Shown: positions 20,873 to 34,127 of the stretch, in pieces
Layout: each line of letters starts with the position of its first letter
Position numbering within the stretch: the first letter of the stretch is position 1
Source of the DNA: a virus
Virus record (IMG/VR): IMGVR_UViG_3300020470_000021
Coordinates: 1-47,778 of that record
Length of the DNA: 47,778 nt
Reading direction: 5' to 3' (one strand)
The notes under the pieces: generated by a model
Told to the model about the DNA's origin: nothing
The model's input: the letters and a program-made list of their open reading frames with translations, nothing else
Database searches by the model: none
Program-made: the position numbers and the translations under genes

Positions 20873-20909
20873 CTTTCGTTACACTTCTTCTCGTGTTTAG
20901 AGCATTGGG

Positions 20910-21068: not shown

Positions 21069-21082
21069 ATATCTTACCTCGA

Positions 21083-21322
21083 TTATTTGAACTCAGAGAC
21101 GACGCCTTCACTGTTTCTCATCTGTAGTTTGATAAGACCAATCTTTTGTCTTCTCACCAATTCATTCTTCACTTTTTGTCTGAGTTTTGGTTTAGTGTTT
21201 TCATCATTAAATGATTTCAAAAGCTCATCCAAAGGTTGACATTTCATCCAATAGTATTCAGTCTTTTCCTTTTTGGTAAGACGATCTATTGTTCTATGTT
21301 CTGTTTTATATTTTACTGGCAT
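21083..21322 (-). CDS. Small basic hypothetical protein
   Basis: A 79-residue basic protein (MPVKYKTEHRTIDRLTKKEK...). Residues 20-70 are helical with Lys/Glu pairs; no domain recognised. A late octamer TATAAATA lies nine bases before the ATG and there is no clear ribosome site, so this is another short-leader late gene. Confidence 0.65.
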   Translation of the reverse strand: MPVKYKTEHRTIDRLTKKEKTEYYWMKCQPLDELLKSFNDENTKPKLRQKVKNELVRRQKIGLIKLQMRNSEGVVSEFK

Positions 21323-21331
21323 CGTATCCAG

Positions 21332-21339
21332 TATTTATA
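21332..21339 (-). promoter_or_regulatory. T4 late promoter TATAAATA
   Basis: Exact late octamer on the minus strand, nine bases before ATG 21322. It falls in the 20-base gap below the Coq4-like gene. Confidence 0.65.
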
Positions 21340-21342
21340 TAT

Positions 21343-22332
21343 TTATCGTTCTTGACTACACTGATATAGTCGATTTCCTTGTTCCCATCTCTCTGTTTTA
21401 TACTTTTTAGATGGAAAAGTATTAAAATGTCTTACACCAGTGAACTTTTGATATGATTTAGTCATCTTGATACCTAACTTTCTTCTTAGTTTAGGTAAGT
21501 CTGTTTGAAGTGCAGATTCAAAATCTATCTCTAATAAGTTCTTAGATTTCTTTGCATGGTTGATTGCTTCTGTTCTCATCCTAAATGGTTCCCATGTTCT
21601 ATGTTTAACTGATTCTCTTAAACATGTTAACCAAGTAATTACATACAATCCAGTGTATCCAGAATGCACTGCATTCCAACATAGGATTAACATTTCACCT
21701 AATTGGTCTCTTCCATAGTTCAATAGGATATGATACATGTCGTGCAAGCCCATAAACCTATCTCCAACACGAATTCTTAATGCTTTACTCATTCCTAGAT
21801 TCTCTACATCTTTTTTCAACTGAGGATGTACTTTAGGGTTAGTAAGATAGTAGTCTAGTGATTTTTTTCCCAGATGTTTTGAAAGGTCTGGAGAAAAGCG
21901 GCTTTGTTCGTGTTTCTTAACTTGGTTATGTGATATATCTGCAAAGTGTCTTGCACTATACCAAGGCTTACCATATTTACCTTCGACTCCTTCTTTTGCA
22001 TAGATAGGTTTCCAGAACTTCATGAATTCCATATATTCATATCCAAGAGAACCTTTTGGACATGATTCCAAAAAGTCTTGGTCGCATAATAGTTCTGAAT
22101 GTAACCAATGTCCATCGGTTATAGGTCTAGTCTCTGGGTCGGTTGCCCATTTGTATACTAACTTTCTACTTTCTAATGCACCAACACCAAAGAATTGTGA
22201 TGCTACATCACCAAATACTTCCAGACTGTAGTCTGGTCTTATTCTGGATGTTGAAATGTTCCATAGAGATTTTACTTGTTGCCAAGGGGATGTCCACATC
22301 CCAGTGTTGAAATGGTCAACTGGTTTTTTCAT
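21343..22332 (-). CDS. Coq4-like protein (first copy)
   Basis: A 329-residue protein with the Coq4 zinc-binding signature HDxxH-x11-E at His197, Asp198, His201 and Glu213 (HDMYHILLNYGRDQLGE). The flanking helices (ALRIRVGDRFMGLHDMYH, LILCWNAVHSGYTGLYVITWL) also fit the family. Coq4 takes part in ubiquinone biosynthesis in bacteria and mitochondria, with a role in head-group modification. The extra N-terminal 180 residues are longer than in most Coq4 proteins. A second Coq4-like protein is encoded at 38071. Whether it acts on quinones in infected cells is inference. Confidence 0.85.
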   Translation of the reverse strand: MKKPVDHFNTGMWTSPWQQVKSLWNISTSRIRPDYSLEVFGDVASQFFGVGALESRKLVYKWATDPETRPITDGHWLHSELLCDQDFLESCPKGSLGYEYMEFMKFWKPIYAKEGVEGKYGKPWYSARHFADISHNQVKKHEQSRFSPDLSKHLGKKSLDYYLTNPKVHPQLKKDVENLGMSKALRIRVGDRFMGLHDMYHILLNYGRDQLGEMLILCWNAVHSGYTGLYVITWLTCLRESVKHRTWEPFRMRTEAINHAKKSKNLLEIDFESALQTDLPKLRRKLGIKMTKSYQKFTGVRHFNTFPSKKYKTERWEQGNRLYQCSQER

Positions 22333-22579
22333 CTTCGAGTTCCTTTAATCTTGCTTCAATAATATCCATTCTTTCTGATAACAATGGATAGTCCTTTCTC
22401 CACTTTGCTTCTTTTTTAGCAATTTCTATATCATATTTAGTGGACAAGTATTCCATAAATGAGTTTACCTTGTTCTGAAACCAGATACCCATTGTGGTTG
22501 ATTGAAACCATCGATAAAAGGAACTACCTATCACTGATGATAGGATAGACTTTAATGATAGTATAAGTAACATGTACAT
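22316..22579 (-). CDS. Small membrane-anchored coiled-coil protein
   Basis: An 87-residue protein with an N-terminal hydrophobic segment (MYMLLILSLKSILSSVIGSSF) and a charged C-terminal coiled coil (RMDIIEARLKELEDEKTS). It overlaps the Coq4-like gene by 17 bases, which suggests coupled translation. No family recognised. It could act as a spanin-like or scaffold protein. Confidence 0.65.
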   Translation of the reverse strand: MYMLLILSLKSILSSVIGSSFYRWFQSTTMGIWFQNKVNSFMEYLSTKYDIEIAKKEAKWRKDYPLLSERMDIIEARLKELEDEKTS

Positions 22580-22580
22580 A

Positions 22581-22958
22581 TTAAAACCTCTTCATGTAGT
22601 AAATACCATTATGGGTTACTACTAATCCTTGTAGACCAGTCATTAACTTTAATGCAAACTCTCGGTCTTTGTTTGGTGATGCATCTAACAGTTTATAGAT
22701 TATTACATTACCCATAACCTTAACAGCCAACAATCTTTCTTTAGATGGATGACTACCTATGATGGGATTCATTTCTACAAAAGGACAAGATGGTTGTTTC
22801 TGACAATCAATCATTTTCCATGTTTGATATGTGTCAATTGCAGATAGTGCTAGGTATGAATGGTAAAGTTTTCTTTCTTTTTCTGTCCAGTCTTTTAGGG
22901 CAGCTTCACACGACCCCGCAGCAGACATAAAAAATAAAACTGTCAATAACCACTTCAT
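22581..22958 (-). CDS. Secreted or membrane hypothetical protein
   Basis: A 125-residue protein with a signal peptide (MKWLLTVLFFMSAAGSCEA, possible lipobox AAGSC). The mature part contains a WKMIDCQ...CPFVEMNPIIGSHPS block and a second helical segment (LAVKVMGNVIIYKLL). NP-x-x-G-x-HP is a motif I associate with predicted phage and bacterial membrane proteins, but I cannot assign a family. It lies next to the lipase gene, three bases apart, so a role in lysis or membrane remodelling is conceivable. Confidence 0.65.
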   Translation of the reverse strand: MKWLLTVLFFMSAAGSCEAALKDWTEKERKLYHSYLALSAIDTYQTWKMIDCQKQPSCPFVEMNPIIGSHPSKERLLAVKVMGNVIIYKLLDASPNKDREFALKLMTGLQGLVVTHNGIYYMKRF

Positions 22959-22961
22959 TTA

Positions 22962-23831
22962 TCATACATTATCCCTTTCCAGATGTTTAATATAGTCCAC
23001 TATATTATGGTCTGCAACAAAGTCTAATCTTCCTTTTATTATTGTTGTTAATAATCCCCATCCTTTATCTTTGATTCGTTCCAGAGACCATCTTCCTAAG
23101 TCTGTTACTGTTCCATCAGACTTGATGTACTTGCACCTTCCATTGTGTCTCCATCTGAATACTGTTGGTACACAAGGTACAACATCATTGTTGTTTACGA
23201 ATCTTTGATGGTTTAAATGTTTATCACACCACTTAGAGAACTTCGGGCCACCAGCTCTTGGTGAACCATAAGTGTAAAGAGTATCTACATCAAACTTATT
23301 GACATACTCAAGACGACTTGCAATAAGGGTTGCCATTGCACCACCTAGTGAATGACCACATACCCAAATCTTCTTTGCAACTCTTCCTTTCTTTCCATAC
23401 TTTTCTACTCTGGAAAGAATTGAGTCCCAAACTTTATCGACTTCTTCTCTAAAACCTTGATGGATTTGTCCAATTCCAGTGAATGAATCGGACTTGAATA
23501 TTTCTAAATCTGCATAGACATCAGACATTTCAGTAGGTTCTGTACCCCTAGCTGCAATAACTAAGTCTTCTGCATCATGCCAAATGTGAACTTGAGCACC
23601 CTCAATATCAATAAATTGATGTGCTTTCCATCCAAACTGTTTACCAAACTGTTTACCATCTGCTTTATTCCAGTATGCAGCTTGAGAACACTTTGCAAAA
23701 AGGACTCGTCTGTCCTTTTCTTTTAAGTTAAAAACTTTACTCATAGACCTGTTCCTCAATTCCATATTGGGAACATTATCTTTAGTATTCTTTTTTCCAG
23801 TGAATTTGATAACTCTTACTTGTTCATTCAT
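22962..23831 (-). CDS. Class 3 lipase-family alpha/beta hydrolase
   Basis: A 289-residue lipase_3-type hydrolase. The nucleophile elbow is GHSLGG with Ser161. The remaining triad fits Asp216 (NNNDVVPCVPT) and His275 (ADHNIVDYI). The fold is supported by DLVIAARGTEPTEMSDVYADL and HQGFREEVDKVWDSI. There is no signal peptide, so it would act on the inner side of the membrane or in the cytoplasm unless released at lysis. It overlaps RegA by four bases. A phage lipase near gp62 and regA is unusual; it may degrade membrane lipids or storage lipids late in infection. Confidence 0.88.
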   Translation of the reverse strand: MNEQVRVIKFTGKKNTKDNVPNMELRNRSMSKVFNLKEKDRRVLFAKCSQAAYWNKADGKQFGKQFGWKAHQFIDIEGAQVHIWHDAEDLVIAARGTEPTEMSDVYADLEIFKSDSFTGIGQIHQGFREEVDKVWDSILSRVEKYGKKGRVAKKIWVCGHSLGGAMATLIASRLEYVNKFDVDTLYTYGSPRAGGPKFSKWCDKHLNHQRFVNNNDVVPCVPTVFRWRHNGRCKYIKSDGTVTDLGRWSLERIKDKGWGLLTTIIKGRLDFVADHNIVDYIKHLERDNV

Positions 23832-24226
23832 TTACTAACCACGCCAATGTTGTATTTCGGAATAAGTTCCCATTCAGTTTTTTCTTTGTAGGGTAAAACC
23901 TTAATCTGACTCATTGGTGCAAGTGGTGTTGAAGTGTTATCTGATATTATCTTAATCAATCCCCATTCTTCTAAAAGTCTGGCAATTGCATTCCTTCTTC
24001 CAATATCTGATTCCACCATAGAAGACTCTTTACCATCTAATGCAAAGAGTTCCTTGAAGTGTACAAGATAGTATCTTCCTCGTTTATGTAAGATATGACA
24101 CGATTGATAGAGTATCTTTTCTTTTCGAGACGCCACACCAATTCTAGTTAGTGTCTCTTTGACCTTTAGAAAGTCATCGGATTCTTTCAACTCTACCTCT
24201 ACCATATCGGAGAGGTCGTAGCTCAT
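23828..24226 (-). CDS. regA: RegA translational repressor
   Basis: A 132-residue protein matching T4 RegA, which binds the start region of early mRNAs and represses their translation. The N-terminal DMVEVELKESDDFLKVKETLTRIGVAS and the conserved HILHKRGRYYLVHFKELFALDG block are clear; the C-terminal GLIKI and LPYKEK fit too. It directly follows gp62 as in T4. It may act on this phage's own early mRNAs, including leaderless ones. Confidence 0.95.
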   Translation of the reverse strand: MSYDLSDMVEVELKESDDFLKVKETLTRIGVASRKEKILYQSCHILHKRGRYYLVHFKELFALDGKESSMVESDIGRRNAIARLLEEWGLIKIISDNTSTPLAPMSQIKVLPYKEKTEWELIPKYNIGVVSK

Positions 24227-24229
24227 TGT

Positions 24230-24607
24230 TTATTGTCTCCCACCTTTTTTCATTCTGTTTTTCAATTCCTCAATGTCCTTTTCAGAAAGAAGTTTCATAT
24301 AATCTTCTGCTTTAGACTTTGAGACTCCATAATACTCTTGAATGACTTTCATGTCGTCCAAGACATTCGGTTTTGCCCATTTAGCAAACCTTTTTCTTTT
24401 TCTAAGAGTATTTAGGAAATAATGAAATTGAAGACGACTATTTAGGTGGTGTCTACGATTCATTTCGTTCGCATAGAGTATGCAATCTTGGTGGTAGGAT
24501 AGTGTCCTATTTGTGATATAAGGAGCGTATTCTTTCTCTGAGATATCATCTACCATAATATCTTTCTTTGTAAATGTTATTGAATTAACAAAGTCGAAAG
24601 GATTCAT
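24230..24607 (-). CDS. 62: Clamp loader small subunit gp62
   Basis: A 125-residue gp62-like protein; with gp44 it loads the gp45 clamp. The length is shorter than T4 gp62 (187) but typical of marine relatives. Blocks that fit are FDFVNSITFTKKDIM, YHQDCILYANEMNRRHHLNSRLQFHYFLNTLRKRKRFAKW and the C-terminal helical region. The upstream gene overlaps it by four bases and RegA follows in the T4 order. Confidence 0.88.
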   Translation of the reverse strand: MNPFDFVNSITFTKKDIMVDDISEKEYAPYITNRTLSYHQDCILYANEMNRRHHLNSRLQFHYFLNTLRKRKRFAKWAKPNVLDDMKVIQEYYGVSKSKAEDYMKLLSEKDIEELKNRMKKGGRQ

Positions 24608-24780
24608 TCTTTTGGTGGTACTATTAGTGGCATTCCAAACTCGTTACGAGACTTAGACGACACAGTAATTTCACCATCCATCTTGTCTTTAATCTCTTTC
24701 AATGCAGATAGGACTACATCCATATCTTCTTTTTCCAGAGTTCGGAACATTCTAATTATTTCTATTATATTTTCACTCAT
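24604..24780 (-). CDS. Small protein upstream of gp62, leaderless
   Basis: A 58-residue acidic helical protein (MSENIIEIIRMFRTLEKEDMDVVLSALKEI...). No recognised family. The ATG at 24780 is six bases after a perfect TATAAT, with no ribosome site. Its stop overlaps the gp62 start (ATGA), so it probably initiates translation of the gp62-regA operon. Confidence 0.65.
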   Translation of the reverse strand: MSENIIEIIRMFRTLEKEDMDVVLSALKEIKDKMDGEITVSSKSRNEFGMPLIVPPKE

Positions 24781-24786
24781 ATTAAT

Positions 24787-24814
24787 ATTATACCATAGTT
24801 TTATGATCTGTCTT
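24787..24814 (-). promoter_or_regulatory. Promoter AAGACA-16-TATAAT, leaderless
   Basis: Minus strand AAGACA, 16-bp spacer, TATAAT. The -35 is weaker than in the sister promoters but the spacing is identical. It overlaps the end of the cytidylyltransferase gene and starts the small gene-gp62-regA-lipase operon. Confidence 0.7.
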
Positions 24815-25199
24815 GTATTTTTTGTCTTAATCCACTACTTGAAAATGAATGTTTTCTGTTAGTATAAAACACTTTAAGTGGTAGATGGTCTCCAGTAAAT
24901 GACTTATCCTTGTAGTCTTCACCTATGAATCTTGTATCGATAGGTGTAGATTCCAGTAAGTCAATCAAACTTTCTTCGGTATCATATGGGATTATCTCGT
25001 CCACATACTTAATTGCATTCAATTGTGTATATCTTTCATACACAGATTGTACTGGTGTATTCTTTTCTTGTCTGTCGATACTTGGGTCTGTTTGTAATCC
25101 TACAATTAGATAATCACAATTCTCTCTTGCTTCTTTTAACATTACTACATGACCAGCATGTAATAAGTCAAAACATCCACATGTGAATCCTTTATGCAT
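24801..25199 (-). CDS. Cytidylyltransferase-like nucleotidyltransferase (TagD/RfaE type)
   Basis: A 132-residue nucleotidyltransferase. The HxGH motif is in GCFDLLHAGHVVMLKEARENCDYLIVGL (about residues 7-33), and the C-terminal SSSGLR matches the second nucleotide-binding motif (ISxTxLR in the family). Relatives activate glycerol-3-phosphate or heptose with CTP or ATP. The enzyme could supply an activated donor for the glycosyltransferases encoded a few kilobases away. I chose ATG 25199; a longer N terminus is possible. It overlaps the cupin gene by eight bases. Confidence 0.82.
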   Translation of the reverse strand: MHKGFTCGCFDLLHAGHVVMLKEARENCDYLIVGLQTDPSIDRQEKNTPVQSVYERYTQLNAIKYVDEIIPYDTEESLIDLLESTPIDTRFIGEDYKDKSFTGDHLPLKVFYTNRKHSFSSSGLRQKIQDRS

Positions 25200-25500
25200 G
25201 TCTTTCACCCTTGAATACACAAACAAATATTAAGTTACTCTTACCAGTATTATGTACTCTATGAAACTCACCATCTTTAATTAGAACAATCTTATCTTCT
25301 TCTACATCAATCACTCTGTCATCTATTTCCATTTGACCCTTTCCATATTGAAAGATGTATACTTCTTCTTGTCCTTTATGTGAATGACCAGTGGTACTTT
25401 TACCAGCATGTAGTATTGTTCTGGATACGACTAAATCTCTGAGGGAAGTATCATCCTCAACAATATACCTATCATCCTTTTTTACTATTTGACCATTCAT
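25192..25500 (-). CDS. Cupin-fold protein
   Basis: A 102-residue single-domain cupin. Metal-binding motif 1 is HSHKGQEEVYIF (about residues 39-50) and motif 2 is HRVHN near 81. Related small cupins act as sugar isomerases, epimerases or sensors. It is fused by overlap to the nucleotidyltransferase and flanked by tRNA-Gly, so a sugar-nucleotide role is plausible. Substrate unknown. Confidence 0.78.
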   Translation of the reverse strand: MNGQIVKKDDRYIVEDDTSLRDLVVSRTILHAGKSTTGHSHKGQEEVYIFQYGKGQMEIDDRVIDVEEDKIVLIKDGEFHRVHNTGKSNLIFVCVFKGERHA

Positions 25501-25504
25501 AAAC

Positions 25505-25579
25505 TGGAGCGGAAGGAGAGAATCGAACTCTCATCTTTTGGTTGGAAACCAAAGGTAATAACCATTATACGACTCCCGC
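25505..25579 (-). tRNA. tRNA-Gly (anticodon TCC)
   Basis: A 75-base cloverleaf on the minus strand. Acceptor GCGGGAG pairs with CTTCCGC, the anticodon stem TTTGG/CCAAA carries loop TTTCCAA, the T arm is GAGAG/CTCTC, and the CCA end is encoded with discriminator T. It lies one base after the stop of the gene at 25581 and is probably processed from that transcript. Confidence 0.94.
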
Positions 25580-25580
25580 G

Positions 25581-26708
25581 TTATCTAATAATATCTATGT
25601 CGTCTGGATTTTCGTTCCAGACTTCCATTGTTGTTCTAAACCTACCATCTTGTTTAAGATTCTCATACCTATTGGATGCTTTCTTCTTCCAATATGCAAC
25701 TAGGTTATCCATAGAGAACCTATCATAGTTCTCTGCTTTCTTTAATTCTGTTTCTTTACCAGTAATAACTTCTTTAACATTACTGAATCCCATTGTAGAA
25801 ATGTAGTATCTTTTTCTTTCTTGTAATGACTCTGCATCTTTCATTACTTGTTTGAAGTGTGTATTATCTTTTAATGACTTCTTAATGATACCTACCATCT
25901 TTGCTTGTGCTTTCATCTTTCTACTTGATGCACCTGGCCATACAATTGCTTCACCACCATTCTTATCCACAAACCATTTTTCTAAATCTCTAAAGTATTC
26001 ATCATTCATTAATGGTGCAAAGTTACTTTCTGTTAGTCCTTGACCTTTGATAAAAGGTTTAAGTCCATCATACTGAGACATACTTTTGGTTGAACCATAT
26101 AAAGATGTAGTTTCAAAATGGCACATATCCATATCATATTTCTGATTAACTACTTCTCTTAACTCATGTGATATACACATCAATGCAAGTAGTTTACCAC
26201 CCAGATAGTTATATCCAAATGGTTGTACTGGAATAATTATCATACCCATCAGTGCATGTTTGTTAAACACTGGCATTTCTTCTGCACTAAGAACTTCACC
26301 AAAGTAAGTATTTCTTGGTTTAATGTTCATCATAGGTGAACCCATTCTACCAAACCCTACAATCTTACCAGTATTCTTTTCTCTTACAATAAAGATAACC
26401 TTTCGGCCTGGATTACTCATTTCAATTACTTGAGAAGATACCACACTAAGGTAATCATGAAAAACTTGTGGTTCTGGATTCCAGTCAACTACAAACTCCA
26501 TATCATTTGGATGCATATCAAAGTCTTGAAAGAAATCATCAGATACATTCATACCCAATAAAGGTCTTGGCATTTCATCGACTCTTTCAAGTTTAACTTT
26601 ACGAAAATACTCACTCATGTCTTCAAACTGAGTATAGTATTCTTCAAACTTAGACGCAGCGTACTCTGCATCCTCATTTGATAAAGTTAAATCACAAACC
26701 CATTCCAT
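25581..26708 (-). CDS. Hypothetical protein with GNAT/DUF4338-like central region
   Basis: A 375-residue protein. The middle (about residues 95-215) reads VIFIVREKNTGKIVGFGRMGSP, then HALMGMIIIPVQPFGYNYLGGKLLALMCIS and CHFETTSLYG. This order resembles the acetyltransferase-like fold seen in Mom and DruA-type (DUF4338) proteins. The C-terminal half is basic and helical. Sequence similarity is too low to name it. It lies next to two glycosyltransferases, overlapping the first by one base, so a role in nucleic-acid modification is possible. Confidence 0.5.
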   Translation of the reverse strand: MEWVCDLTLSNEDAEYAASKFEEYYTQFEDMSEYFRKVKLERVDEMPRPLLGMNVSDDFFQDFDMHPNDMEFVVDWNPEPQVFHDYLSVVSSQVIEMSNPGRKVIFIVREKNTGKIVGFGRMGSPMMNIKPRNTYFGEVLSAEEMPVFNKHALMGMIIIPVQPFGYNYLGGKLLALMCISHELREVVNQKYDMDMCHFETTSLYGSTKSMSQYDGLKPFIKGQGLTESNFAPLMNDEYFRDLEKWFVDKNGGEAIVWPGASSRKMKAQAKMVGIIKKSLKDNTHFKQVMKDAESLQERKRYYISTMGFSNVKEVITGKETELKKAENYDRFSMDNLVAYWKKKASNRYENLKQDGRFRTTMEVWNENPDDIDIIR

Positions 26709-27517
26709 TAGTACAAAAATTCCTCTAATGTTTTGGTATGATATGAATTATATGCATCTTTTAAATCTGTCTTAAACTTTCTAACTCTACCTATTCCTTT
26801 GTATTCATCATACTGATTCAAAGGTGTAACGAATGCATATTTCTTTGCAATCTTCATCATTTCTGCATCATTAACTTCACTTGTTCTAAACTCTGCACAT
26901 CCACCTTCTGCAAATGCAGTTTCCCATCTAGTCATTGCAACTTCATCAGAAATATAATGTAGGTATCCACGCTGTAAACATTCTAAAGTTAATACTAAGT
27001 CTTCACCTATCTGTGCTAAGTTCCAATCGACTTCATCTATAAACTTTGATAACTTTAAACCATCAATCCAATGAACTGCAAGTATAGGTTTAAAATGAAA
27101 ATACTTTTGACCATATGGTGGTAATGATACATCCCTATGACCTATATGCATGACATTCTTATCATCAAATAATCTATGTACTTCTGACAACCAATAGTTC
27201 CAATCATCAAGATTCATAAGTCTTCTTGAAGTTTCCATATTGGATTCTTCACCCATGTACTTTGCATTCCTTCTAAACAATCTAAGGTCATCATCCATTA
27301 TACCAAATCGATGAAGTCCAGCATGTTGATAGATTAGTTCTCTGGTTTTTGCAATACCAATATCATTACCTACAACTAGATATTCACAATCATATTTGTA
27401 TTGGTCTCTTTCTTGTTGTTGAACAACCATGATAACATTCTTTTGAATCTCTTCTGGTAGATTCTCAAATGTTATTTGATTATCAACTCTTTTATATGTT
27501 GGTATGTAAATTCTCAT
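26708..27517 (-). CDS. GT-A glycosyltransferase (TAGT-like)
   Basis: A 269-residue GT-A fold glycosyltransferase. The N terminus MRIYIPTYKRV is the family start, and the metal-binding DxD is in FGIMDDDLRLF (about residue 93-103). Later motifs HWIDGLKL and WNLAQIGEDLVLTLECLQRG (with the catalytic ED) agree. It resembles the TET/JBP-associated glycosyltransferases that add sugars to hydroxylated bases in phage DNA. Overlap with its neighbours by four bases and one base shows a common operon. The acceptor (DNA, LPS or protein) is not known. Confidence 0.75.
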   Translation of the reverse strand: MRIYIPTYKRVDNQITFENLPEEIQKNVIMVVQQQERDQYKYDCEYLVVGNDIGIAKTRELIYQHAGLHRFGIMDDDLRLFRRNAKYMGEESNMETSRRLMNLDDWNYWLSEVHRLFDDKNVMHIGHRDVSLPPYGQKYFHFKPILAVHWIDGLKLSKFIDEVDWNLAQIGEDLVLTLECLQRGYLHYISDEVAMTRWETAFAEGGCAEFRTSEVNDAEMMKIAKKYAFVTPLNQYDEYKGIGRVRKFKTDLKDAYNSYHTKTLEEFLY

Positions 27518-28851
27518 TTCCAGTTATATGTAGGCATCTTATCCATGACATCAAATATGTTTGGATGTTCCAACAATCCTCTTCTGTAAGGTGTAAACTT
27601 AATTCCTCTACCCCAACCACAATGTTCATTAAACAATTCTTTTTTAGTAATACTACCTTTCTGTTTAATAACTTCTATAAGTTCATTAGTCTTATCTGAT
27701 AGAGTTGGTTTAGTGGATTCTATAATCTCGATAAAATCTTTATACATCTGTTCCATATTATCTTTATATAAAAGATTAAGTCTTAAATGGTTTATTGCAT
27801 CATAAGATTTTTTCATTCTATGTTCTGGTTCGTCTAGATAGATGTTTAATAAATCTAGTGCCTCTTGGTCTGTTGTGAAGAAGTCTGCACCATCAAATAA
27901 TTCATGATAGTATTCACCATCATACATTATATAAGGACAACCATTCATCATCCCATCAGTTGTTGCTACACTCCATCCACCATACTTTTGTTTAGGTGAA
28001 AATCCAACACAACATTCTTTCAGCTTATCATAATATCCTTCTTTGTCAAATTTCTCATTTGTCAAATAAGGTCGGTCTAGTTTTCCATCTAATAGTGGAA
28101 CCCAAACCTTAAAGTCTTGTCTCTCTTCCCAGAGTAAATCCATCAATTGAATAAACTCTTTGTAATGTTTGTATGAGTCTGGTCTATGATTGAATACAAT
28201 TGTATTGTCTATGTTTACAGCCATATCTCTTACTATATCTTCTTCCATAACACCTAGATATTGAACAGTTAGAATTTCATCTAATTGGTGTATAGTTTGT
28301 AAATTGAAATGGTCTCTTGCTTGTTCCAATACCATATTCTTTTGTGTTTGTGTATTGATATAACACTTTTCCATTTCTAACAATCCACATATGTTTTGTT
28401 TGAACGAATCTTTTGCCCATACACATACATGTTCAAAGTCAAACCAATGTGCATAACCTATCACTTTAGGTGTATGATGTGTAAGATTGTACAAGGTATT
28501 TACCAGTTGATGTGTATGTTCTGGTAGATGACTCATCACTAAATCAAAATCTCTATCATGACCCATAAGTTTTTTAAACTTCGTTACATCAAAATGACTT
28601 CTCATTGCTGGTGGATATGTGGGAAGTTCCCACATTAATTGTTCTGTATTAGGAAAGTCTAAACCATCTATATGTTCTGGAGATAGGATTGTCCAGAAGA
28701 TTGGTTTATCTTGTAGTTCTCTAATCATGTTCTTCATTACTTGAACATAACTATCCTTTTCTAAGTCTTTAGCAAATGTAATATTAGGATAGACCAAGAC
28801 TCTGATAGTCTTATCAAGAGAAACTTCTTTATCTATATCATACAAATTCAT
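27514..28851 (-). CDS. GT-B glycosyltransferase with C-terminal winged-helix-like domain
   Basis: A 445-residue protein with a GT-B/GT4 layout: a Rossmann-like N-terminal half with FDLVMSHLPEHTH and GYAHWFDFEHVC, then the donor-binding half with FNHRPDSYKHYKEFI, VGFSPKQKYGGWSVATTDGMMNGCPYIMYD (the EX7E-like region) and VWVPLLDGKLDRP. The last 65 residues (LIEVIKQKGSITKKELFNE...) look like a small winged-helix domain, which would suit DNA binding. It overlaps the endonuclease gene by 14 bases. A DNA-modifying role is inference. Confidence 0.7.
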   Translation of the reverse strand: MNLYDIDKEVSLDKTIRVLVYPNITFAKDLEKDSYVQVMKNMIRELQDKPIFWTILSPEHIDGLDFPNTEQLMWELPTYPPAMRSHFDVTKFKKLMGHDRDFDLVMSHLPEHTHQLVNTLYNLTHHTPKVIGYAHWFDFEHVCVWAKDSFKQNICGLLEMEKCYINTQTQKNMVLEQARDHFNLQTIHQLDEILTVQYLGVMEEDIVRDMAVNIDNTIVFNHRPDSYKHYKEFIQLMDLLWEERQDFKVWVPLLDGKLDRPYLTNEKFDKEGYYDKLKECCVGFSPKQKYGGWSVATTDGMMNGCPYIMYDGEYYHELFDGADFFTTDQEALDLLNIYLDEPEHRMKKSYDAINHLRLNLLYKDNMEQMYKDFIEIIESTKPTLSDKTNELIEVIKQKGSITKKELFNEHCGWGRGIKFTPYRRGLLEHPNIFDVMDKMPTYNWK

Positions 28852-29599
28852 CTATGAATTCCTCTAATAATAATGCACTCATAATATTATAATCTTGATA
28901 GTTTTCTAACTTTTTAAACATAGCATTTTGGTATATAACACCATCTAAGAATAAAACCTTTTCTACTGTTTGGTCTGTTGCAACTGGTGTTTCTAATGTA
29001 GTTAATGCATCTAATAATTGATTGTTTTGATGTCCACCCATTTCAGTTAAAAACTTTGCTTCTCCAATAATGTATGTCTCATTTAGTTTAGCAAAAAAAT
29101 CAAGTCCCTTATTTCTTTCATACCCAATCTGTTCTTCTGCATGTTTCTTCAACACTGCATCACTATCTAATAATATATAACCAGTACCAGTTGGAGAAAA
29201 ATCTAACAACAATTTCTCCACATAATTTCTAAAGTGGGAACCCATAGTTCTATTGTTTTCCATAGGTTCTGATACATAAAAGTAAATATCATCCAAGTCC
29301 ATTGCTAAAACCATATTACAAATCTTTTCAACCACTTTGGGATTATCAAAGATTGCATTACGATCTCTTCTTAAAAAAGATACATATGAATTCTTAATTG
29401 GAAACTTTTTGAACTCCAACATCTTCTCAAACAGTAATCTATTAGCATCACCTTTCTCATAAAGATGTTTAAACCCTTTCCATACTTGTGGGTCAACTTG
29501 TCTTTGTGGATGTGTTCTGATTGGATAGACTTCGAGTAGTCTATCTAGATAGTCTTCGTTTTGTGCAAGGTCTAACGATTTTTCTAACCATTTATTCAT
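28838..29599 (-). CDS. Tsp45I-like type II restriction endonuclease
   Basis: A 253-residue protein that resembles Tsp45I-type restriction enzymes (target GTSAC in Tsp45I). The PD-(D/E)xK core fits Asp167 (GLDFF), Glu180 and Lys182 in IIGEAKFLTEMGGHQNNQLLDAL, the block most typical of the family. The catalytic residues look intact. No cognate methyltransferase is encoded in this window. It lies between a glycosyltransferase and a 2OG oxygenase. The start is ATG 29599, overlapping the oxygenase stop as ATGA. Confidence 0.75.
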   Translation of the reverse strand: MNKWLEKSLDLAQNEDYLDRLLEVYPIRTHPQRQVDPQVWKGFKHLYEKGDANRLLFEKMLEFKKFPIKNSYVSFLRRDRNAIFDNPKVVEKICNMVLAMDLDDIYFYVSEPMENNRTMGSHFRNYVEKLLLDFSPTGTGYILLDSDAVLKKHAEEQIGYERNKGLDFFAKLNETYIIGEAKFLTEMGGHQNNQLLDALTTLETPVATDQTVEKVLFLDGVIYQNAMFKKLENYQDYNIMSALLLEEFIDEFV

Positions 29600-30360
29600 A
29601 TGCACTTAGGAAACGGCACCGCTTGATATTGTCTAGGGTCTAATGACCACTGGTAATTTCCTGTCTCATGACCAGAGCAATATACACTCTCTGGAATAAT
29701 ATCGAATGCAATTGTTACTCTAGGTTTATCTTCAAGCCATGGAGTTGATGAATGTTCAAATGATGATGGTGAATAGATTATCATATCATCATAATCTACA
29801 TGTTTAACCCACTCTTCTTCTGGAGATTCTGGGCCTTCTCTATACCAAGTTTGAGAAGGTTGTACATTTGCACAATAAAATCCATGATAGATATGTGGAT
29901 GATAAATTTCTAAATGTTTATGCCAAGGGATATGGTCATATCCTCTATTCTCATCATCTTTCTTGGTGTATACATTAAACCATCCATGTATATAATATGG
30001 TTCACCAGCAAGATGTACTTGTTCATCTGAATAGAAGAACTCATTTAACTTCCAGTATAAATCTGCAAATGGTCTATGTCCAAATTGAAATGGATTGTAA
30101 GTAGAATAGAATTCTATTTCTTTACTTGATTCTTCCATGTCATGTTGACCATCTTCACCAAAGTCTTTTCCTTCTTTAGCACCTCTAACATATGACCTTA
30201 AGTTTTCACTAAACTGATTTGGTGTTGAAGTACCATCTTCGTCATGTGCAAACATAGGATGGTTTTCATGTTCAATACAGAAATCTGTAATCCATTTATA
30301 ATCTAAACCAGTATTGAGTTTAATTCTAAATAAGTCTTTTGTTAGTTTTGGTTGTTCCAT
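29596..30360 (-). CDS. 2OG-Fe(II) oxygenase-like protein in the modification island
   Basis: A 254-residue protein. A His/Tyr-rich block HIPWHKHLEIYHPHIYHGFYCAN (about residues 147-170, quoted in pieces) and an SSFEHSSTP site followed by KPRVTIAFD fit the HxH/HxD...H...R arrangement of 2OG-Fe(II) oxygenases. Acidic elsewhere; no signal or membrane segment. It is the first gene of the unit leading to the endonuclease and glycosyltransferases. It could hydroxylate a base that the glycosyltransferases then decorate, though a protein or sugar substrate is also possible. Confidence 0.7.
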   Translation of the reverse strand: MEQPKLTKDLFRIKLNTGLDYKWITDFCIEHENHPMFAHDEDGTSTPNQFSENLRSYVRGAKEGKDFGEDGQHDMEESSKEIEFYSTYNPFQFGHRPFADLYWKLNEFFYSDEQVHLAGEPYYIHGWFNVYTKKDDENRGYDHIPWHKHLEIYHPHIYHGFYCANVQPSQTWYREGPESPEEEWVKHVDYDDMIIYSPSSFEHSSTPWLEDKPRVTIAFDIIPESVYCSGHETGNYQWSLDPRQYQAVPFPKCI

Positions 30361-30554
30361 TAGAAATCCTTTTTATAATGTCTGTCTTCATATTCTAATT
30401 CAACAATTACTTTGTCGTTTTTTCTGACACCATTTTTATATAAATGTTCATACATTCCTTCTGCACCAGCATTGACTCCAGTCTTATGACCATGCCAATA
30501 TGCAAGTGCAACTACACCACTTAGAATAAGATAATGTATTAGTTGGTATTCCAT
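30360..30554 (-). CDS. Small membrane hypothetical protein
   Basis: A 64-residue protein with an N-terminal helix (LIHYLILSGVVALAYWHGHKTG) and a charged C-terminal tail (VELEYEDRHYKKDF). Overlaps both neighbours by one base. No family recognised; it may be a type I membrane protein with the tail in the cytoplasm. Confidence 0.65.
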   Translation of the reverse strand: MEYQLIHYLILSGVVALAYWHGHKTGVNAGAEGMYEHLYKNGVRKNDKVIVELEYEDRHYKKDF

Positions 30555-30721
30555 TATATATTTAGCATCTTTCTAATTACACAAAATACAAAAATGGCAG
30601 AGAAGGTTGCGAACTCAGCGGTTCCTTCACCAAATGTAACTGCCATACCCAATAGACAGAAACCAGCAACAAAAGTAAATTTGTTATTGTCTCTGTTTAT
30701 CCATTCTTTGAATTGTTTCAT
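30554..30721 (-). CDS. Small membrane hypothetical protein
   Basis: A 55-residue protein starting at ATG 30721, which overlaps the gp44 stop (ATGA). A hydrophobic hairpin-like segment (FTFVAGFCLLGMAVTFGEGTAEFATFSAIFVFCVI, quoted as two helices at about 16-31 and 37-49) is flanked by basic ends. Two short helices with a small turn resemble holins or small phage inner-membrane proteins. Function unknown. Confidence 0.65.
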   Translation of the reverse strand: MKQFKEWINRDNNKFTFVAGFCLLGMAVTFGEGTAEFATFSAIFVFCVIRKMLNI

Positions 30722-31650
30722 GAGAATTTGCACTCCATCATTAATTCTGTTAAACATGCAACCAAGTTAATTTCTTGGTCGGCCACGAATGCAGATTTAT
30801 AACTGTAATCTGCAATAATTAAAACTGCTTGTGGAATTGTTGACTTGTCAATAGTGTCATACAAACTGTCATACAATTTCCTATACAACATCACTGGGTC
30901 ATTATCAATATTCATTGCAACCCATCGTCTCATATCGGTAAACCTTTTGGTTTTAAGATGAGACATTAGTTCATTTAAACTTTCTTCTTGGACATTCGAT
31001 AAGATACCTACATCTATTTCACCACTGGTTCCATATCTCTGTAGTTCGTTTATTGTCCTTCTAAAGTCTGGGAAGTATTTGATTACCAATTCTTGTAATA
31101 CATCTGTATTAAACTTAATACCTTCCTCAGTTAATATTGTCATCAACCTTGCCATGAAAACAGATGCAAGTCTTGGTCTTTCCTTAGATGGTATTCTAAA
31201 GTCAATTACAGTACATCTTGAATGTAAAGGTTGTATGATTCTGTTCTTAAAGTTACATGTTAAGATAAATCTACAGTTCTTGTGGAACTCTTCGATAAAT
31301 CCTCTCAAGGCAGGCTGTGTTGATTGTGGATTTAGATAATCTGCTTCATCAAGAATAACAACTTTGTTCCCACCACCCAACGACACAGTAGATGCAAAGT
31401 TTTTAATCTTTGTTCTTAAAACATCAATACCACTTTCTTCTGAACCATTAATGATAATCCAATCTGCACCAACTTGCTCACATAATGCTCTTGCAACAGT
31501 TGTCTTACCAGTACCAGCAGTACCACTAAGAATCATATTTGGAATTTCACCTTTTAAGTCAAAAAAGGTTTTCTTGATTTCACTTGGAAGTACACAATCC
31601 TCAATTGTTTTGGGACGATACTTCTCTACCCATAAAAATTCATCTGTCAT
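30718..31650 (-). CDS. 44: Clamp loader large subunit gp44 (AAA+)
   Basis: A 310-residue RFC-like AAA+ ATPase. It loads the gp45 clamp with gp62. Walker A SGTAGTGKT at 42-50, Walker B VVILDEADYL near 100, sensor 1 LTCNFKNRI, the arginine finger in LHSRC. The family start WVEKYRPKTIEDCVLP follows ATG 31650; a TTG ten codons upstream would add SDFFYSRYI and is less likely. Confidence 0.95.
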   Translation of the reverse strand: MTDEFLWVEKYRPKTIEDCVLPSEIKKTFFDLKGEIPNMILSGTAGTGKTTVARALCEQVGADWIIINGSEESGIDVLRTKIKNFASTVSLGGGNKVVILDEADYLNPQSTQPALRGFIEEFHKNCRFILTCNFKNRIIQPLHSRCTVIDFRIPSKERPRLASVFMARLMTILTEEGIKFNTDVLQELVIKYFPDFRRTINELQRYGTSGEIDVGILSNVQEESLNELMSHLKTKRFTDMRRWVAMNIDNDPVMLYRKLYDSLYDTIDKSTIPQAVLIIADYSYKSAFVADQEINLVACLTELMMECKFS

Positions 31651-31766
31651 AATATATCTCGAATAAAAGAAGTCTGACAACCCACCTTATCAAACTGAAC
31701 AAGACCCCTAGATGAGAGAGTTGGTCTTGCAGCCCTTAATACCAATGTCTTAGTATCTACAATCAT
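31647..31766 (-). CDS. Possible 39-residue protein between gp45 and gp44
   Basis: The reading frame runs from ATG 31766 (MIVDTKTLVLRAARPTL...) to a TGA that overlaps the gp44 ATG, which would couple translation to gp44. There is no ribosome site, and a TATAAATA octamer abuts the ATG, too close to serve as its promoter. It could be a leader peptide or noise. Confidence 0.35.
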   Translation of the reverse strand: MIVDTKTLVLRAARPTLSSRGLVQFDKVGCQTSFIRDIL

Positions 31767-31778
31767 TATTTATATGAG

Positions 31779-32447
31779 TTAAGACCCATATTTTGAATCT
31801 GGTTCTAATGCAATAAAGTATTCGACACCTTTATTCTTTGCAACAAAGTGTGAAATACCTTTTGATGATACATACACTGTATAATCATCATCCAATACCT
31901 TCAAGTTTTCCATCTTGAAGTTCATTGAATATACACTACCATCACCATCCATAATGTGTTCACCAAATTCATTACTTGAATCAGTCAACTTTCTATCTCT
32001 AACAATTAAAGTTACAACTGTTCCATCAGACTCTAAAACTAAGTCTGGAAGAGATAGTACACTACTTGCTTTTTGTAGTTTAGAAAGAGTATTATTATCT
32101 AACTCAAATACAATCTCTGGGTTAGGCATAGTTATTTCTTTCTCTGGAGTTATAATCATTGAAGGGTCAGCATAAACATATTTTGCCTTATTACTACCTT
32201 CACTAACTACAACATTAGATGCACCAAAGTCATATGTTGGTGTTTCAAATAACGACAATGTTGCAAGAAACTCTGATAAGTCATATATCGAAAACTCTGT
32301 ATCAAAGTTCTCAGATACTTTTGCTGTACCAAAGATATTTTTCATTGGGGATATGGTTTTTAACTCTTGCCCCACCTTGACAGTAATTCCAGAATTAATA
32401 TCTGCAAAATTGTCTAAGACTTCAAGAGTATCATTACTAAGATTCAT
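31779..32447 (-). CDS. 45: Sliding clamp gp45
   Basis: A 222-residue trimeric sliding clamp that tethers gp43 to DNA and, in T4, activates late transcription with gp33 and gp55. The length is close to T4 gp45 (228). Strands such as NFKMENLKVLDDDYTVYVSSKGISHFVAKNKGVEYFIALE and DLSEFLATLSLFETP fit the family. Acidic, with no signal. It overlaps the upstream gene by 11 bases and precedes gp44 as in T4. Confidence 0.93.
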   Translation of the reverse strand: MNLSNDTLEVLDNFADINSGITVKVGQELKTISPMKNIFGTAKVSENFDTEFSIYDLSEFLATLSLFETPTYDFGASNVVVSEGSNKAKYVYADPSMIITPEKEITMPNPEIVFELDNNTLSKLQKASSVLSLPDLVLESDGTVVTLIVRDRKLTDSSNEFGEHIMDGDGSVYSMNFKMENLKVLDDDYTVYVSSKGISHFVAKNKGVEYFIALEPDSKYGS

Positions 32448-32727
32448 CTGTTACCTCACTATTAGATTCATCATGGTTATACAATGCTATCAGTGCATAA
32501 TGCACTACTTTAAGTAAGTCTTGACGATTCCTACCACCTTTCTTACCATATCTCATTGCGTACTTCATTATATTGCCAATGGCAAATCCCTCACCATGTC
32601 CAGAGTCGATTATCATATCAGTTGCCTGATACTTACCACCACCATAGTGTTCACCATAGGTTCCAGTAACATAATCTGCTATCTCTTTCAAAAGTTTGGG
32701 TTCATTAAATTTATATTCTATACTCAT
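32437..32727 (-). CDS. DUF3310-family protein, leaderless
   Basis: A 96-residue protein with the DUF3310 pattern: GEGFAIGNIMKYAMRYGKKGGRNRQDLLKVVHYALIALYNHD in the second half (quoted in part), i.e. GN-x2-KY-x2-R-x-GKK. This family is common in phages and has unproven roles in nucleotide metabolism. The ATG is six bases after GATAAT and has no ribosome site. It starts the clamp operon (gp45, gp44). Confidence 0.78.
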   Translation of the reverse strand: MSIEYKFNEPKLLKEIADYVTGTYGEHYGGGKYQATDMIIDSGHGEGFAIGNIMKYAMRYGKKGGRNRQDLLKVVHYALIALYNHDESNSEVTDES

Positions 32728-32733
32728 ATTATT

Positions 32734-32761
32734 ATTATCTCATGGAATGCTTATTTGTCAA
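32734..32761 (-). promoter_or_regulatory. TTGACA-16-GATAAT promoter for the clamp operon, leaderless
   Basis: Nearly the same sequence as the promoter at 13283-13310. TTGACA, 16 bp, GATAAT, then six bases and the ATG at 32727. Confidence 0.8.
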
Positions 32762-32762
32762 G

Positions 32763-33086
32763 TTACCATTTTTCCTTAAATTCGGTGTATCCAATAAACT
32801 TACCATTCTCGTCATATTTGTATACTGGTCTTGCAACTGAACATGGATTATGTCCAGAACCAATATATTTAAAATGTCTTTGAACTGTCATAGGGTCAAC
32901 ATGGTCTAGATACCTATCAACCCAATAGTTATTAGCATCACAGTAATTTTCGACTTCTTCATAAGTTCCATGAACATAGTCCACGAATACTCCAACAGAA
33001 TTGATTACCCTCGCATATTCTTGTTGGTCTATTTGACCTCTAGGAATATCTTGCTTGGGTAAATCTAATTCTAATTGTTTAGTCAT
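32763..33086 (-). CDS. Hypothetical protein
   Basis: A 107-residue soluble protein. Central FVDYVHGTYEEVENYCDANNYWVDRYLDH is helical; the end carries PVYKYDENGKFIGYTEFKEKW. No domain assigned. It overlaps the upstream membrane protein gene by eight bases and ends just above the clamp-operon promoter. Confidence 0.65.
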   Translation of the reverse strand: MTKQLELDLPKQDIPRGQIDQQEYARVINSVGVFVDYVHGTYEEVENYCDANNYWVDRYLDHVDPMTVQRHFKYIGSGHNPCSVARPVYKYDENGKFIGYTEFKEKW

Positions 33087-33297
33087 TGTTTGAATAATAC
33101 ATCCTTATAGTAAAAACTCTTAAAAGTGCAACTAAAGTCATACCTATTGTAACAACAACAGAAGTTTCAAGAGTATTAAGTCCAATTACATCCCAGCAAA
33201 GATATAGTAATCCTAAACTGATTGGCCAATTGATAATCAACCCAGTAAAAACTGTAACGAAAGTTTCTTGAAGCACTTTTTGTTTTTTCCTATCCAT
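33079..33297 (-). CDS. Small two-helix membrane protein
   Basis: A 72-residue protein from ATG 33297 (MDRKKQKVLQETF). Two transmembrane helices (FTGLIINWPISLGLLYLCW and LETSVVVTIGMTLVALLRVFTI) with a basic N terminus. The longer frame upstream is occupied by the next gene. The start overlaps that gene's stop by eight bases. Size and topology are holin-like but also fit many small phage membrane proteins. Confidence 0.7.
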   Translation of the reverse strand: MDRKKQKVLQETFVTVFTGLIINWPISLGLLYLCWDVIGLNTLETSVVVTIGMTLVALLRVFTIRMYYSNND

Positions 33298-33427
33298 CTT
33301 TCTCGTTTTGATATAGTAGTTCCATAATCTTCTCGAACTGGTCTTCGATCTTCTTTTTCTGATCATCAATCCTTTTCCTTTCAAATCGATTACGATGTTC
33401 TTGATGTTCCATTTGTATGTTTTCCAT
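33290..33427 (-). CDS. Small helical coiled-coil protein
   Basis: A 45-residue protein (MENIQMEHQEHRNRFERKRIDDQKKKIEDQ...). It is almost entirely charged and helical, a short coiled coil. An AAGGAC ribosome site precedes ATG 33427. It overlaps the membrane-protein gene downstream by eight bases. It is the first gene after the ncRNA at 33455-33568. Confidence 0.6.
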   Translation of the reverse strand: MENIQMEHQEHRNRFERKRIDDQKKKIEDQFEKIMELLYQNEKDG

Positions 33428-33454
33428 GTTTTGTCCTTATATGCATGGTATGTT

Positions 33455-33568
33455 TAAAAATAAAATCTGGCGGGATGGAGTCTCGTCAATACTACAAGAG
33501 CTAGTATTAGAAGTGTCCTCTTTGTATATGGTCAGACTCCTGTCCCTGCCCGAGCCTTTTTTCAGGCC
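33455..33568 (-). ncRNA. Candidate structured phage ncRNA with own promoter
   Basis: On the minus strand a long interrupted helix pairs 33535-33550 with 33469-33482 (segments GGC/GCC, GGGA/TCCC and GGAGTC/GACTCC). Inside are two hairpins: a perfect 7-bp stem at 33488-33508 and AGAGG/CTTCT, whose G-U wobble forms only on the minus strand. A short 5' hairpin (33554-33567) comes first. The 3' end is U-rich (AGATTTTATTTTT). A TATAAT at 33572-33577 precedes it. No reading frame fits. No known family recognised. Confidence 0.6.
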
Positions 33569-33571
33569 CCT

Positions 33572-33577
33572 ATTATA
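33572..33577 (-). promoter_or_regulatory. -10 element for the ncRNA
   Basis: TATAAT on the minus strand, followed by AGGGGCC, the expected start region of the ncRNA. A GCAGAC 17 bases upstream is a poor -35, so the promoter may be weak or activated. Confidence 0.5.
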
Positions 33578-33585
33578 AAACTTTT

Positions 33586-33822
33586 TCATCTTTGGTCTGC
33601 TAACCATCTGTTAAATCTTTCAACTAAACTACTCTTCTTTTTCTCGTCTGCATATTCCCATGTAGTTTCATGAGTAGTTGAGTTTATAATCTGTTTATCA
33701 CCATTGTTGAAGTAGTAGGTTACATACCCACCTTCACCAATTACCATCTTTACTTGTTTACCCCATTCTTCGGCCTTCAAGAGTTCTATTTGTTTTTCTA
33801 CTGCTTCTGAAAATTCTGTCAT
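33586..33822 (-). CDS. Small acidic hypothetical protein
   Basis: A 78-residue protein. Central YVTYYFNNGDKQIINSTTHETTW is beta-like, flanked by helices. Its stop lies just above the ncRNA promoter. ATGA overlap with the upstream 33-residue gene. No family recognised. Confidence 0.65.
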   Translation of the reverse strand: MTEFSEAVEKQIELLKAEEWGKQVKMVIGEGGYVTYYFNNGDKQIINSTTHETTWEYADEKKKSSLVERFNRWLADQR

Positions 33823-33920
33823 TGTTTAAAATAGTTTGTTAATTCCTTAATGAAGACACAACTTATAAAAAAGATGTACAACCAAACTGGGTCTAACCAC
33901 AATTTCGTAAACCACTTCAT
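33819..33920 (-). CDS. 33-residue membrane peptide
   Basis: MKWFTKLWLDPVWLYIFFISCVF then KELTNYFKQ: a single hydrophobic helix with basic N terminus. It overlaps both neighbours through ATGA junctions, which supports it as a real translated gene despite its size. Such tiny membrane proteins are common in phages; function unknown. Confidence 0.55.
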   Translation of the reverse strand: MKWFTKLWLDPVWLYIFFISCVFIKELTNYFKQ

Positions 33921-34072
33921 TCGGCATAAGGGTTATTAAGTTTTGTTACTGCCATGTTGAGTAATCTTTCTTTAGATACTTCAACTCCATAATGAGAAGT
34001 TGCACTCGTAGGTGTAATCTTCCATCCTTTATCTTCACCATAGACATAAACAATTAATTGTTTGGTTGTCAT
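33917..34072 (-). CDS. Small hypothetical protein after the CobS-like gene
   Basis: A 51-residue protein from ATG 34072 (MTTKQLIVYVYGEDKGWKITPTSATSHYGVEVSKERLL...). The frame also opens at ATG 34144, which has a GAGG site, but that stretch would run through the hairpin at 34084-34105 and has low-complexity sequence. The start is therefore uncertain. No family recognised. Confidence 0.55.
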   Translation of the reverse strand: MTTKQLIVYVYGEDKGWKITPTSATSHYGVEVSKERLLNMAVTKLNNPYAE

Positions 34073-34083
34073 TTTGGAAAGAA

Positions 34084-34105
34084 GGGCAAGGTTTAATCCT
34101 TGCCC
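34084..34105 (-). terminator. Terminator-like hairpin after the CobS-like gene
   Basis: Minus-strand GGGCAAGG/CCTTGCCC (8 bp, 6-base loop) followed by TTCTTTCC, an imperfect T run. It lies 23 bases after the CobS-like stop. Could be a weak terminator or mRNA-processing hairpin. Confidence 0.55.
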
Positions 34106-34127
34106 CTTTCCTTTAGGAGAGTCCTTT

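What the first reader, a model, noticed from the sequence alone, without database searches (positions are those of the whole stretch)
25581..30360. Restriction endonuclease embedded in a glycosyltransferase/oxygenase island
A Tsp45I-like PD-(D/E)xK enzyme (Asp167, Glu180, Lys182) lies between a 2OG oxygenase and two glycosyltransferases, one TAGT-like and one GT-B with a winged-helix-like tail. No cognate methylase is encoded here. The arrangement suggests oxidised and glycosylated phage DNA protects the phage while the nuclease destroys host or competing phage DNA. A known principle is that hypermodified phages use DNA marks for self/non-self discrimination; that it applies here is inference.
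Basis: partly seen in the sequence, partly recalled or inferred. Interest (0 to 1): 0.8.

Follow-up and report, generated by a model that had tools for sequence, protein, structure and literature searches.

The report
Phage restriction enzyme, genome lacks its sites
A marine T4-like phage carries a bacterial-type restriction enzyme without its protective methylase, and the sequenced 48 kb of its genome contains not one copy of the enzyme's GTSAC target although close sister phages without the enzyme have many, so the phage seems to protect itself by deleting the target words rather than by marking its DNA.

Summary
ORF 28838-29599(-) is a full-length Tsp45I-family enzyme (PF06300, E=1.7e-66) with invariant D/E/K catalytic residues. 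It lies between a 2OG-oxygenase-like gene and two glycosyltransferase genes. No methylase was found in the window, whereas the 17 relatives with a readable neighbourhood have one beside them.

GTSAC, the Tsp45I site, occurs 0 times in 47,778 bp (38-39 expected), while its one-mismatch neighbours are normal. The closest sister (114 kb, 87.5% nt identity over 41 kb) lacks the enzyme and has 74 sites, 20 of them in the aligned part. None of the 20 survives in the window, although control words survive 61% of the time. Of 191 palindromic words tested, GTSAC is the only one missing here and not in the sisters.

In the same slot that sister carries C5-methylase + TET/JBP + TAGT. This phage has lost the methylase and TET.

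Most likely this is an active solitary restriction enzyme aimed at host or competing phage DNA, with self-protection by erasing its recognition sites. Enzyme activity, target DNA and the unseen part of the genome are untested.

The parts
28838..29599 (-). Tsp45I-family PD-(D/E)xK restriction endonuclease, 253 aa, D167/E180/K182; starts on the ATGA overlap with the 2OG stop codon
   Evidence: PF06300 E=1.7e-66; invariant catalytic residues; AlphaFold2 pLDDT 88.6; start
29596..30360 (-). 2OG-Fe(II) oxygenase-like protein (PHROG 81 type, not Tet_JBP), upstream partner in the operon; conserved in sisters without the enzyme
   Evidence: PHROG 81 E=4e-4; orthologues 64-82% identical
27514..28851 (-). 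GT-B-like glycosyltransferase with C-terminal extension; overlaps the restriction gene by 14 bp
   Evidence: weak PF13524; orthologues in L003, L004, L005
26708..27517 (-). TAGT-family glycosyltransferase (TET-associated), here without TET or C5-methylase
   Evidence: PF20691 E=1.6e-14; PHROG 842 E=3.8e-25; 29% to the TAGT of L114
25581..26708 (-). DruA/DUF4338-like protein (PHROG 19197), common next to clamp-loader genes in marine T4-like phages
   Evidence: PF14236 E=1.2e-7; PHROG 19197 E=2.8e-144
25505..25579 (-). tRNA-Gly(tcc) inside the variable island
   Evidence: ARAGORN
24801..25500 (-). cytidylyltransferase-like and cupin genes, the other end of the variable island (absent from G015)
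   Evidence: PF01467, PF07883
30718..31680 (-). gp44 clamp loader, conserved border of the island (gp62 at 24230-24607 is the other border)
   Evidence: PHROG 168 E=4.5e-124; PF16790 for gp62
1..47778 (.). whole window: zero GTSAC sites on either strand
4174..4977 (-). Mom-family DNA modification protein, present only in the window among the sister contigs; candidate modification gene, unlinked to the enzyme
   Evidence: PF25680 E=2.2e-47; PHROG 1384 E=7e-39; absent in 6 sister contigs

Best explanation
The gene is a working solitary type II restriction endonuclease with Tsp45I specificity (GTSAC), made by a marine T4-like phage from an operon inserted between the replication genes gp44 and gp62. 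It cuts DNA in the infected cell that carries GTSAC, meaning the host chromosome and co-infecting or related phages. The phage is spared because selection has removed every GTSAC from its own genome, so neither a methylase nor base modification is needed. The gene came from a bacterial restriction-modification pair and was swapped, without its methylase, into a slot where sister phages keep a cytosine methylase and TET/TAGT hypermodification set. Shown: gene identity, intact catalytic residues, no methylase in the window, total and lineage-specific loss of exactly GTSAC in the 48 kb seen, and the slot swap. Inferred: catalytic activity, early/middle expression, and which DNA is the main target.
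For: Full-length family match and invariant catalytic residues. GTSAC: 0 observed, 38.1 expected by Markov model and 39.4 +/- 5.6 by synonymous-codon shuffling, minimum of 500 shuffles 23. One-mismatch neighbours and GTWAC are at expectation. Sisters without the enzyme: G001 28/28.1, G002 18/24.9; G015 67/106 by shuffle, 74/98 by Markov; 80 relatives 880/946; Melnitz phage 31/28.8. Pairwise with G015: 20 aligned GTSAC sites, 0 in the window, 14 differing by one base; sign test P=2e-6, retention against controls (170/278) P=2e-8. Of 191 palindromic patterns with expectation >=10, three are absent; GGWCC and ACGT are absent in all three sisters compared (G015, G001, G002), and only GTSAC is window-specific. 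Seventeen family members with readable neighbours have an adjacent methylase. The same slot in L114 holds C5-methylase, Tet_JBP, TAGT, diverging just after the shared stop/start junction TGCATATGAA.
Against: Only 48 kb of the genome is seen, so a distant methylase or remaining sites elsewhere are not excluded. GGWCC and ACGT are also absent with no encoded enzyme identified, so host restriction can by itself produce complete loss in this clade. G015 is itself mildly depleted of GTSAC (0.63-0.75) without the enzyme in its 114 kb. There is a single phage example. Activity is not demonstrated. Foldseek against the PDB gave only weak nuclease-type matches (McrC E=1e-3, Kpn2I, MspJI).
Confidence: 0.76

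Rival explanations
1. Host-driven avoidance: the phage's usual host has a GTSAC restriction-modification system, which purged GTSAC from the phage; the phage's own gene is a recent pick-up from such a host and may be inactive or irrelevant.
For: The same genomes lack GGWCC and ACGT with no encoded enzyme identified. G015 is mildly depleted of GTSAC. Family members are normally cellular R-M genes.
Against: The single window-specific missing pattern among 191 is the target of the one encoded enzyme. Sisters sharing the GGWCC, ACGT and CTGAAG avoidance signature, hence probably similar hosts, keep GTSAC. The gene has a full reading frame, intact catalytic residues and tight translational overlaps.
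Confidence: 0.14
2. Modification protection: glycosylated or oxidised cytosine, or Mom-type adenine modification, shields the phage DNA from its own endonuclease.
For: TAGT and GT-B neighbours; a Mom-family gene in the window. Mom-endonuclease fusions in jumbo phages have been proposed to work this way (PMC7824862).
Against: Zero GTSAC sites remain in the 48 kb seen, so there is nothing to protect. Other sites (GATC, GGWCC, ACGT) are avoided too, as expected for restriction-sensitive DNA. No C5-methylase, TET/JBP or other MTase in the window.
Confidence: 0.06
3. A sub-question under the best explanation rather than a competitor to it: the enzyme works mainly in phage-phage competition (excluding close relatives) rather than in degrading host DNA.
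For: The closest sister, lacking the enzyme, still has 74 GTSAC sites in 114 kb and a mild GTSAC depletion consistent with some exposure. Giant-virus R-M systems (PMC7253447) and a phage homing endonuclease (PMC11620839) exclude competitors.
Against: The host chromosome would be cut as well unless methylated; nothing here separates the two targets. The sister's depletion could instead reflect a host system or past carriage of the enzyme.
Confidence: 0.4

Closest known systems
Tsp45I type II restriction enzyme family (PF06300)
   Same: full-length homology, D...ExK catalytic residues, and the missing genomic word is exactly the Tsp45I site GTSAC
   Different: the relatives with readable neighbours sit beside a methylase gene; this one is methylase-less, in a T4-type phage replication cluster
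Solitary restriction endonucleases in phages (12 found in 831 phages; Oliveira et al. 2014, PMC4176335)
   Same: an REase gene in a phage with no cognate MTase nearby
   Different: I found no report in the held library of the phage genome being purged of that enzyme's own site, and no sister comparison that ties the loss to enzyme carriage
Chlorovirus and marseillevirus restriction-modification systems (PMC7253447)
   Same: virus-encoded type II endonuclease proposed to destroy host DNA or exclude other viruses
   Different: those viruses protect themselves with a paired methylase; here protection is by absence of sites
Phage homing / intron endonucleases used in interference competition (PhiPA3 gp210, PMC11620839)
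   Same: phage nuclease whose carrier lacks a cleavable site, disadvantaging a co-infecting relative
   Different: homing enzymes protect one long site, usually by insertion (general knowledge); this enzyme has a 5-bp site and genome-wide erasure
Mom-endonuclease fusions of jumbo phages (PMC7824862)
   Same: phage nuclease proposed to attack unmodified host or superinfecting DNA
   Different: there modification is the proposed shield; here Mom is unfused and unlinked, and the target sites are gone
C5-methylase / Tet_JBP / TAGT hypermodification cassette of the sister phage L114
   Same: same slot after the same 2OG gene, TAGT shared as a family
   Different: window lacks the methylase and TET and has the endonuclease and GT-B instead

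Membership tests
Tsp45I restriction enzymes (PF06300) | full-length profile match above the curated cut-off | tested here: met
   224.9 bits against cut-off 25, positions 1-258/260
Tsp45I restriction enzymes (PF06300) | PD-(D/E)xK catalytic residues conserved | tested here: met
   D169, E182, K184 invariant in 14 sequences
Tsp45I restriction enzymes (PF06300) | recognises and cuts GTSAC | tested here: inconclusive
   indirect only: GTSAC alone is lost in the carrier lineage; no biochemical test possible
Type II restriction-modification system | cognate methyltransferase adjacent | tested here: not met
   no MTase in the window; adjacent in the 17 relatives with readable neighbours; rest of genome unseen
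TET/JBP-TAGT cytosine hypermodification system | C5-cytosine methylase | tested here: not met
   absent in window; PF00145 E=5e-49 in sister L114
TET/JBP-TAGT cytosine hypermodification system | Tet_JBP oxygenase | tested here: not met
   window 2OG protein matches PHROG 81 / Oxy_5 weakly, not PF12851; PF12851 present in L114
TET/JBP-TAGT cytosine hypermodification system | TAGT glycosyltransferase | tested here: met
   PF20691 E=1.6e-14
Homing endonuclease | HNH, GIY-YIG or LAGLIDADG family, with a long recognition site | tested here: not met
   only the Tsp45I profile matches in Pfam; the inferred site is a 5-bp palindrome absent from the whole window
Mom-REase modification/restriction fusion | endonuclease domain fused to Mom | tested here: not met
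   Mom at 4174-4977 is 267 aa with no endonuclease match; Tsp45I is 24 kb away

The most novel reading that the evidence does not exclude
A class of phage weapons in which self/non-self discrimination is encoded as a missing word: a phage takes up a bare restriction enzyme, erases that enzyme's site from its whole genome, and can then cut host and rival phages with no antidote. The slot switches between 'mark my DNA' (methylase/TET/TAGT) and 'cut everyone else' (solitary endonuclease) states.
Probability: 0.5. Interest if true: 0.88.

Novelty: new variant of a known kind. Interest (0 to 1): 0.78.

Why it matters
Restriction enzymes are thought to need a partner methylase or modified DNA to avoid suicide. 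Here a phage appears to have solved the problem by sequence evolution alone, and its sister phages form a natural control. It gives a simple genome-only test (is a solitary enzyme's own site missing from its carrier but not from its sisters?) that could be run on all phages with solitary restriction genes and would point to active enzymes, their specificities and phage-phage conflict before any bench work. The same slot holding a methylase/TET/TAGT set in sisters links DNA hypermodification and solitary restriction as exchangeable modules.

Tried and rejected
tblastn of the enzyme in annotated phages found nothing. Single-sequence scans of viral and genome contigs found no relatives; profile scans found 13 cellular and 5 viral ones, with a methylase wherever the neighbourhood could be read. 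A TAGT scan of viral contigs found nothing. AlphaFold2 of the 2OG protein with 5 orthologues was poor (pLDDT 44.9), so it was not compared with TET/JBP structures. Foldseek of the enzyme model against the PDB gave no match better than 1e-3. A DpnII-type gene to explain GATC loss in the sisters was not found. I considered that GTSAC loss is a clade-wide or compositional effect and rejected it: sisters with similar composition keep the sites, and neighbouring words are normal. I considered assembly chimerism: the gene overlaps both neighbours by a few bases and the missing-site signal runs along the whole contig, so it is unlikely. Testing ancestral depletion with outgroup sites was inconclusive.

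Full report
OBSERVATION. The window (47,778 bp, 34.8% GC) is a fragment of a marine T4-like phage; its clamp-loader protein gp44 is 62% identical to that of Methylophilales phage Melnitz. Between gp44 (30718-31680) and gp62 (24230-24607), neighbours in the T4 replication cluster, lies an operon on the minus strand: 2OG-like oxygenase, Tsp45I-family endonuclease, GT-B-like protein, TAGT, DruA-like protein, tRNA-Gly, cupin and cytidylyltransferase genes. The endonuclease is a full-length PF06300 member, E=1.7e-66. Its catalytic Asp/Glu/Lys are invariant in 14 relatives, and a confident AlphaFold2 model was obtained (pLDDT 88.6), though its best PDB matches are only weakly similar nucleases.

NO METHYLASE HERE, UNLIKE RELATIVES. 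Twelve cellular or plasmid loci of the family and five viral contigs have an adjacent gene with a methylase motif; two further fragmentary homologues (L105, L106) showed no adjacent motif hit and were not judged, and L095 is a duplicate of L094. In the window no methylase was found by PF01555 or by hmmscan of about 50 ORFs.

THE GENOME LACKS THE TARGET WORD. Tsp45I recognises GTSAC (established knowledge of the enzyme). GTSAC occurs zero times in the window. Expectation is 38.1 from a Markov model and 39.4 +/- 5.6 from 500 synonymous-codon shuffles, whose minimum was 23. GTWAC (86 sites) and the one-mismatch neighbours are at or near expectation. Two other palindromes, GGWCC and ACGT, are also absent.

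SISTERS WITHOUT THE ENZYME ARE THE CONTROL. G001 and G002 (31.6 and 35.1 kb, syntenic, about 76% nt identity) carry GT-B and DruA genes like those of the window (and, in G001, the 2OG gene directly before GT-B) but no endonuclease was found in them, and they carry GTSAC at 28/28.1 and 18/24.9. G015 (114 kb, 87.5% nt identity over 41 kb) has 74 GTSAC sites and no PF06300 match. In the aligned part G015 has 20 sites and the window none; 14 of the 20 differ by a single base. For control words (GASTC, CTSAG, CASTG, TGSCA, GTWAC) 170 of 278 sites are retained and gains and losses are about balanced. GGWCC and ACGT are absent from G015, G001 and G002 as well, so they are a clade or host signature. 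Among 191 palindromic patterns with expectation at least 10, GTSAC is the only one absent in the window and present in the sisters. That this single pattern is the target of the one encoded restriction enzyme is hard to attribute to coincidence.

THE SLOT. In G015 the position directly after the 2OG gene is occupied by a C5-cytosine methylase (PF00145, 5e-49), a Tet_JBP oxygenase (PF12851, 5e-13) and a TAGT (PF20691, 5e-8). Two further sisters (L112, L113) have a closely similar C5-methylase there, in L112 followed by a protein similar to the TET protein of G015 (by reading the sequences, not by profile). The window and G015 share the sequence TGCATATGAA at the stop/start junction and diverge right after it. 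Over the rest of the aligned region the two phages differ in gene content mainly by a Mom-family gene (4174-4977, window only). So, relative to these sisters, the window phage has a solitary endonuclease where they have cytosine-modification enzymes; which state is ancestral is not shown.

MECHANISM. The most economical reading is an active endonuclease and a phage genome purged of its sites by self-cleavage selection. Base modification as the shield is unlikely, because no site is left to shield in the 48 kb seen and because several other restriction sites are avoided as well, as expected for DNA that restriction enzymes can read. The position inside the gp44-gp62 cluster suggests early/middle expression by analogy with T4 (inference). 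The targets would be host DNA and co-infecting phages with GTSAC. A mild GTSAC deficit in G015 (67 of 106 by shuffle; 74 of 98 by Markov) could reflect exposure to this enzyme, past carriage, or a host system; it is not resolved.

MAIN DOUBT. Host restriction can also remove a word completely in this clade (GGWCC, ACGT). A host GTSAC system remains the main rival. It is weakened by the sisters, which share the rest of the avoidance signature but keep GTSAC. Only a third or so of the genome is seen, and there is one enzyme-bearing phage.

LITERATURE. Solitary endonucleases in phages are known but rare (12 in 831 phages, PMC4176335). Viral R-M systems used against host or rival viruses (PMC7253447), an intron endonuclease used in phage competition (PMC11620839) and Mom-endonuclease fusions (PMC7824862) are the nearest ideas. 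A survey of site avoidance in prokaryotic viruses considered host enzymes (PMC6286503); excluded sites (ratio below 0.1) were 3.9% of its site-genome pairs. I found no report of a phage purging the site of its own solitary enzyme, within the open-access library searched.

Noticed in passing
4174-4977 (-): Mom-family DNA modification gene, the only one among the sister contigs. The window has 33 GATC sites (204 expected), whereas sister contigs without a Mom match have 1/441, 0/128, 0/138 and 0/52; Mom-type adenine modification may have relaxed GATC avoidance. A 14-kb fragment (G013), whose phage's Mom status is unknown, has 23/55.
   Followed up: partly
whole window, G015, G001, G002: GGWCC and ACGT are completely absent, and CCTG and CTGAAG strongly depleted, in the sister group; no encoded enzyme was identified, probably host restriction. 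GGWCC is also rare in 80 marine T4-like relatives (37/455).
   Followed up: partly
L114:6756-9957: C5-cytosine methylase, Tet_JBP oxygenase and TAGT in the closest sister phage, a compact cytosine hypermodification cassette in a marine T4-like phage.
   Followed up: partly
25581-26708 (-): DruA/DUF4338-like protein (PHROG 19197) common beside clamp-loader genes in cyanophages and pelagiphages; function in phages unknown although DruA is a Druantia defence protein.
   Followed up: no
13736-19856 (-): CHASE2-guanylate cyclase, FecR-domain, CsgG and CsgF (curli secretion) genes close together, an unusual host-signalling/secretion block in a T4-like phage; conserved in G015.
   Followed up: no
21343-23831 (-): Coq4-like (ubiquinone biosynthesis) and class 3 lipase genes, possible auxiliary metabolic genes.
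   Followed up: no
L003:13982-14452: A small cysteine-rich, HNH-like endonuclease gene (judged by eye) in the same variable island of the sister phage, suggesting nuclease-driven turnover of the slot.
   Followed up: no
L003:11292-12359: A different glycosyltransferase stands in the place of TAGT in the sister G001/G002 island; the glycosyltransferases of the slot are exchanged too.
   Followed up: no
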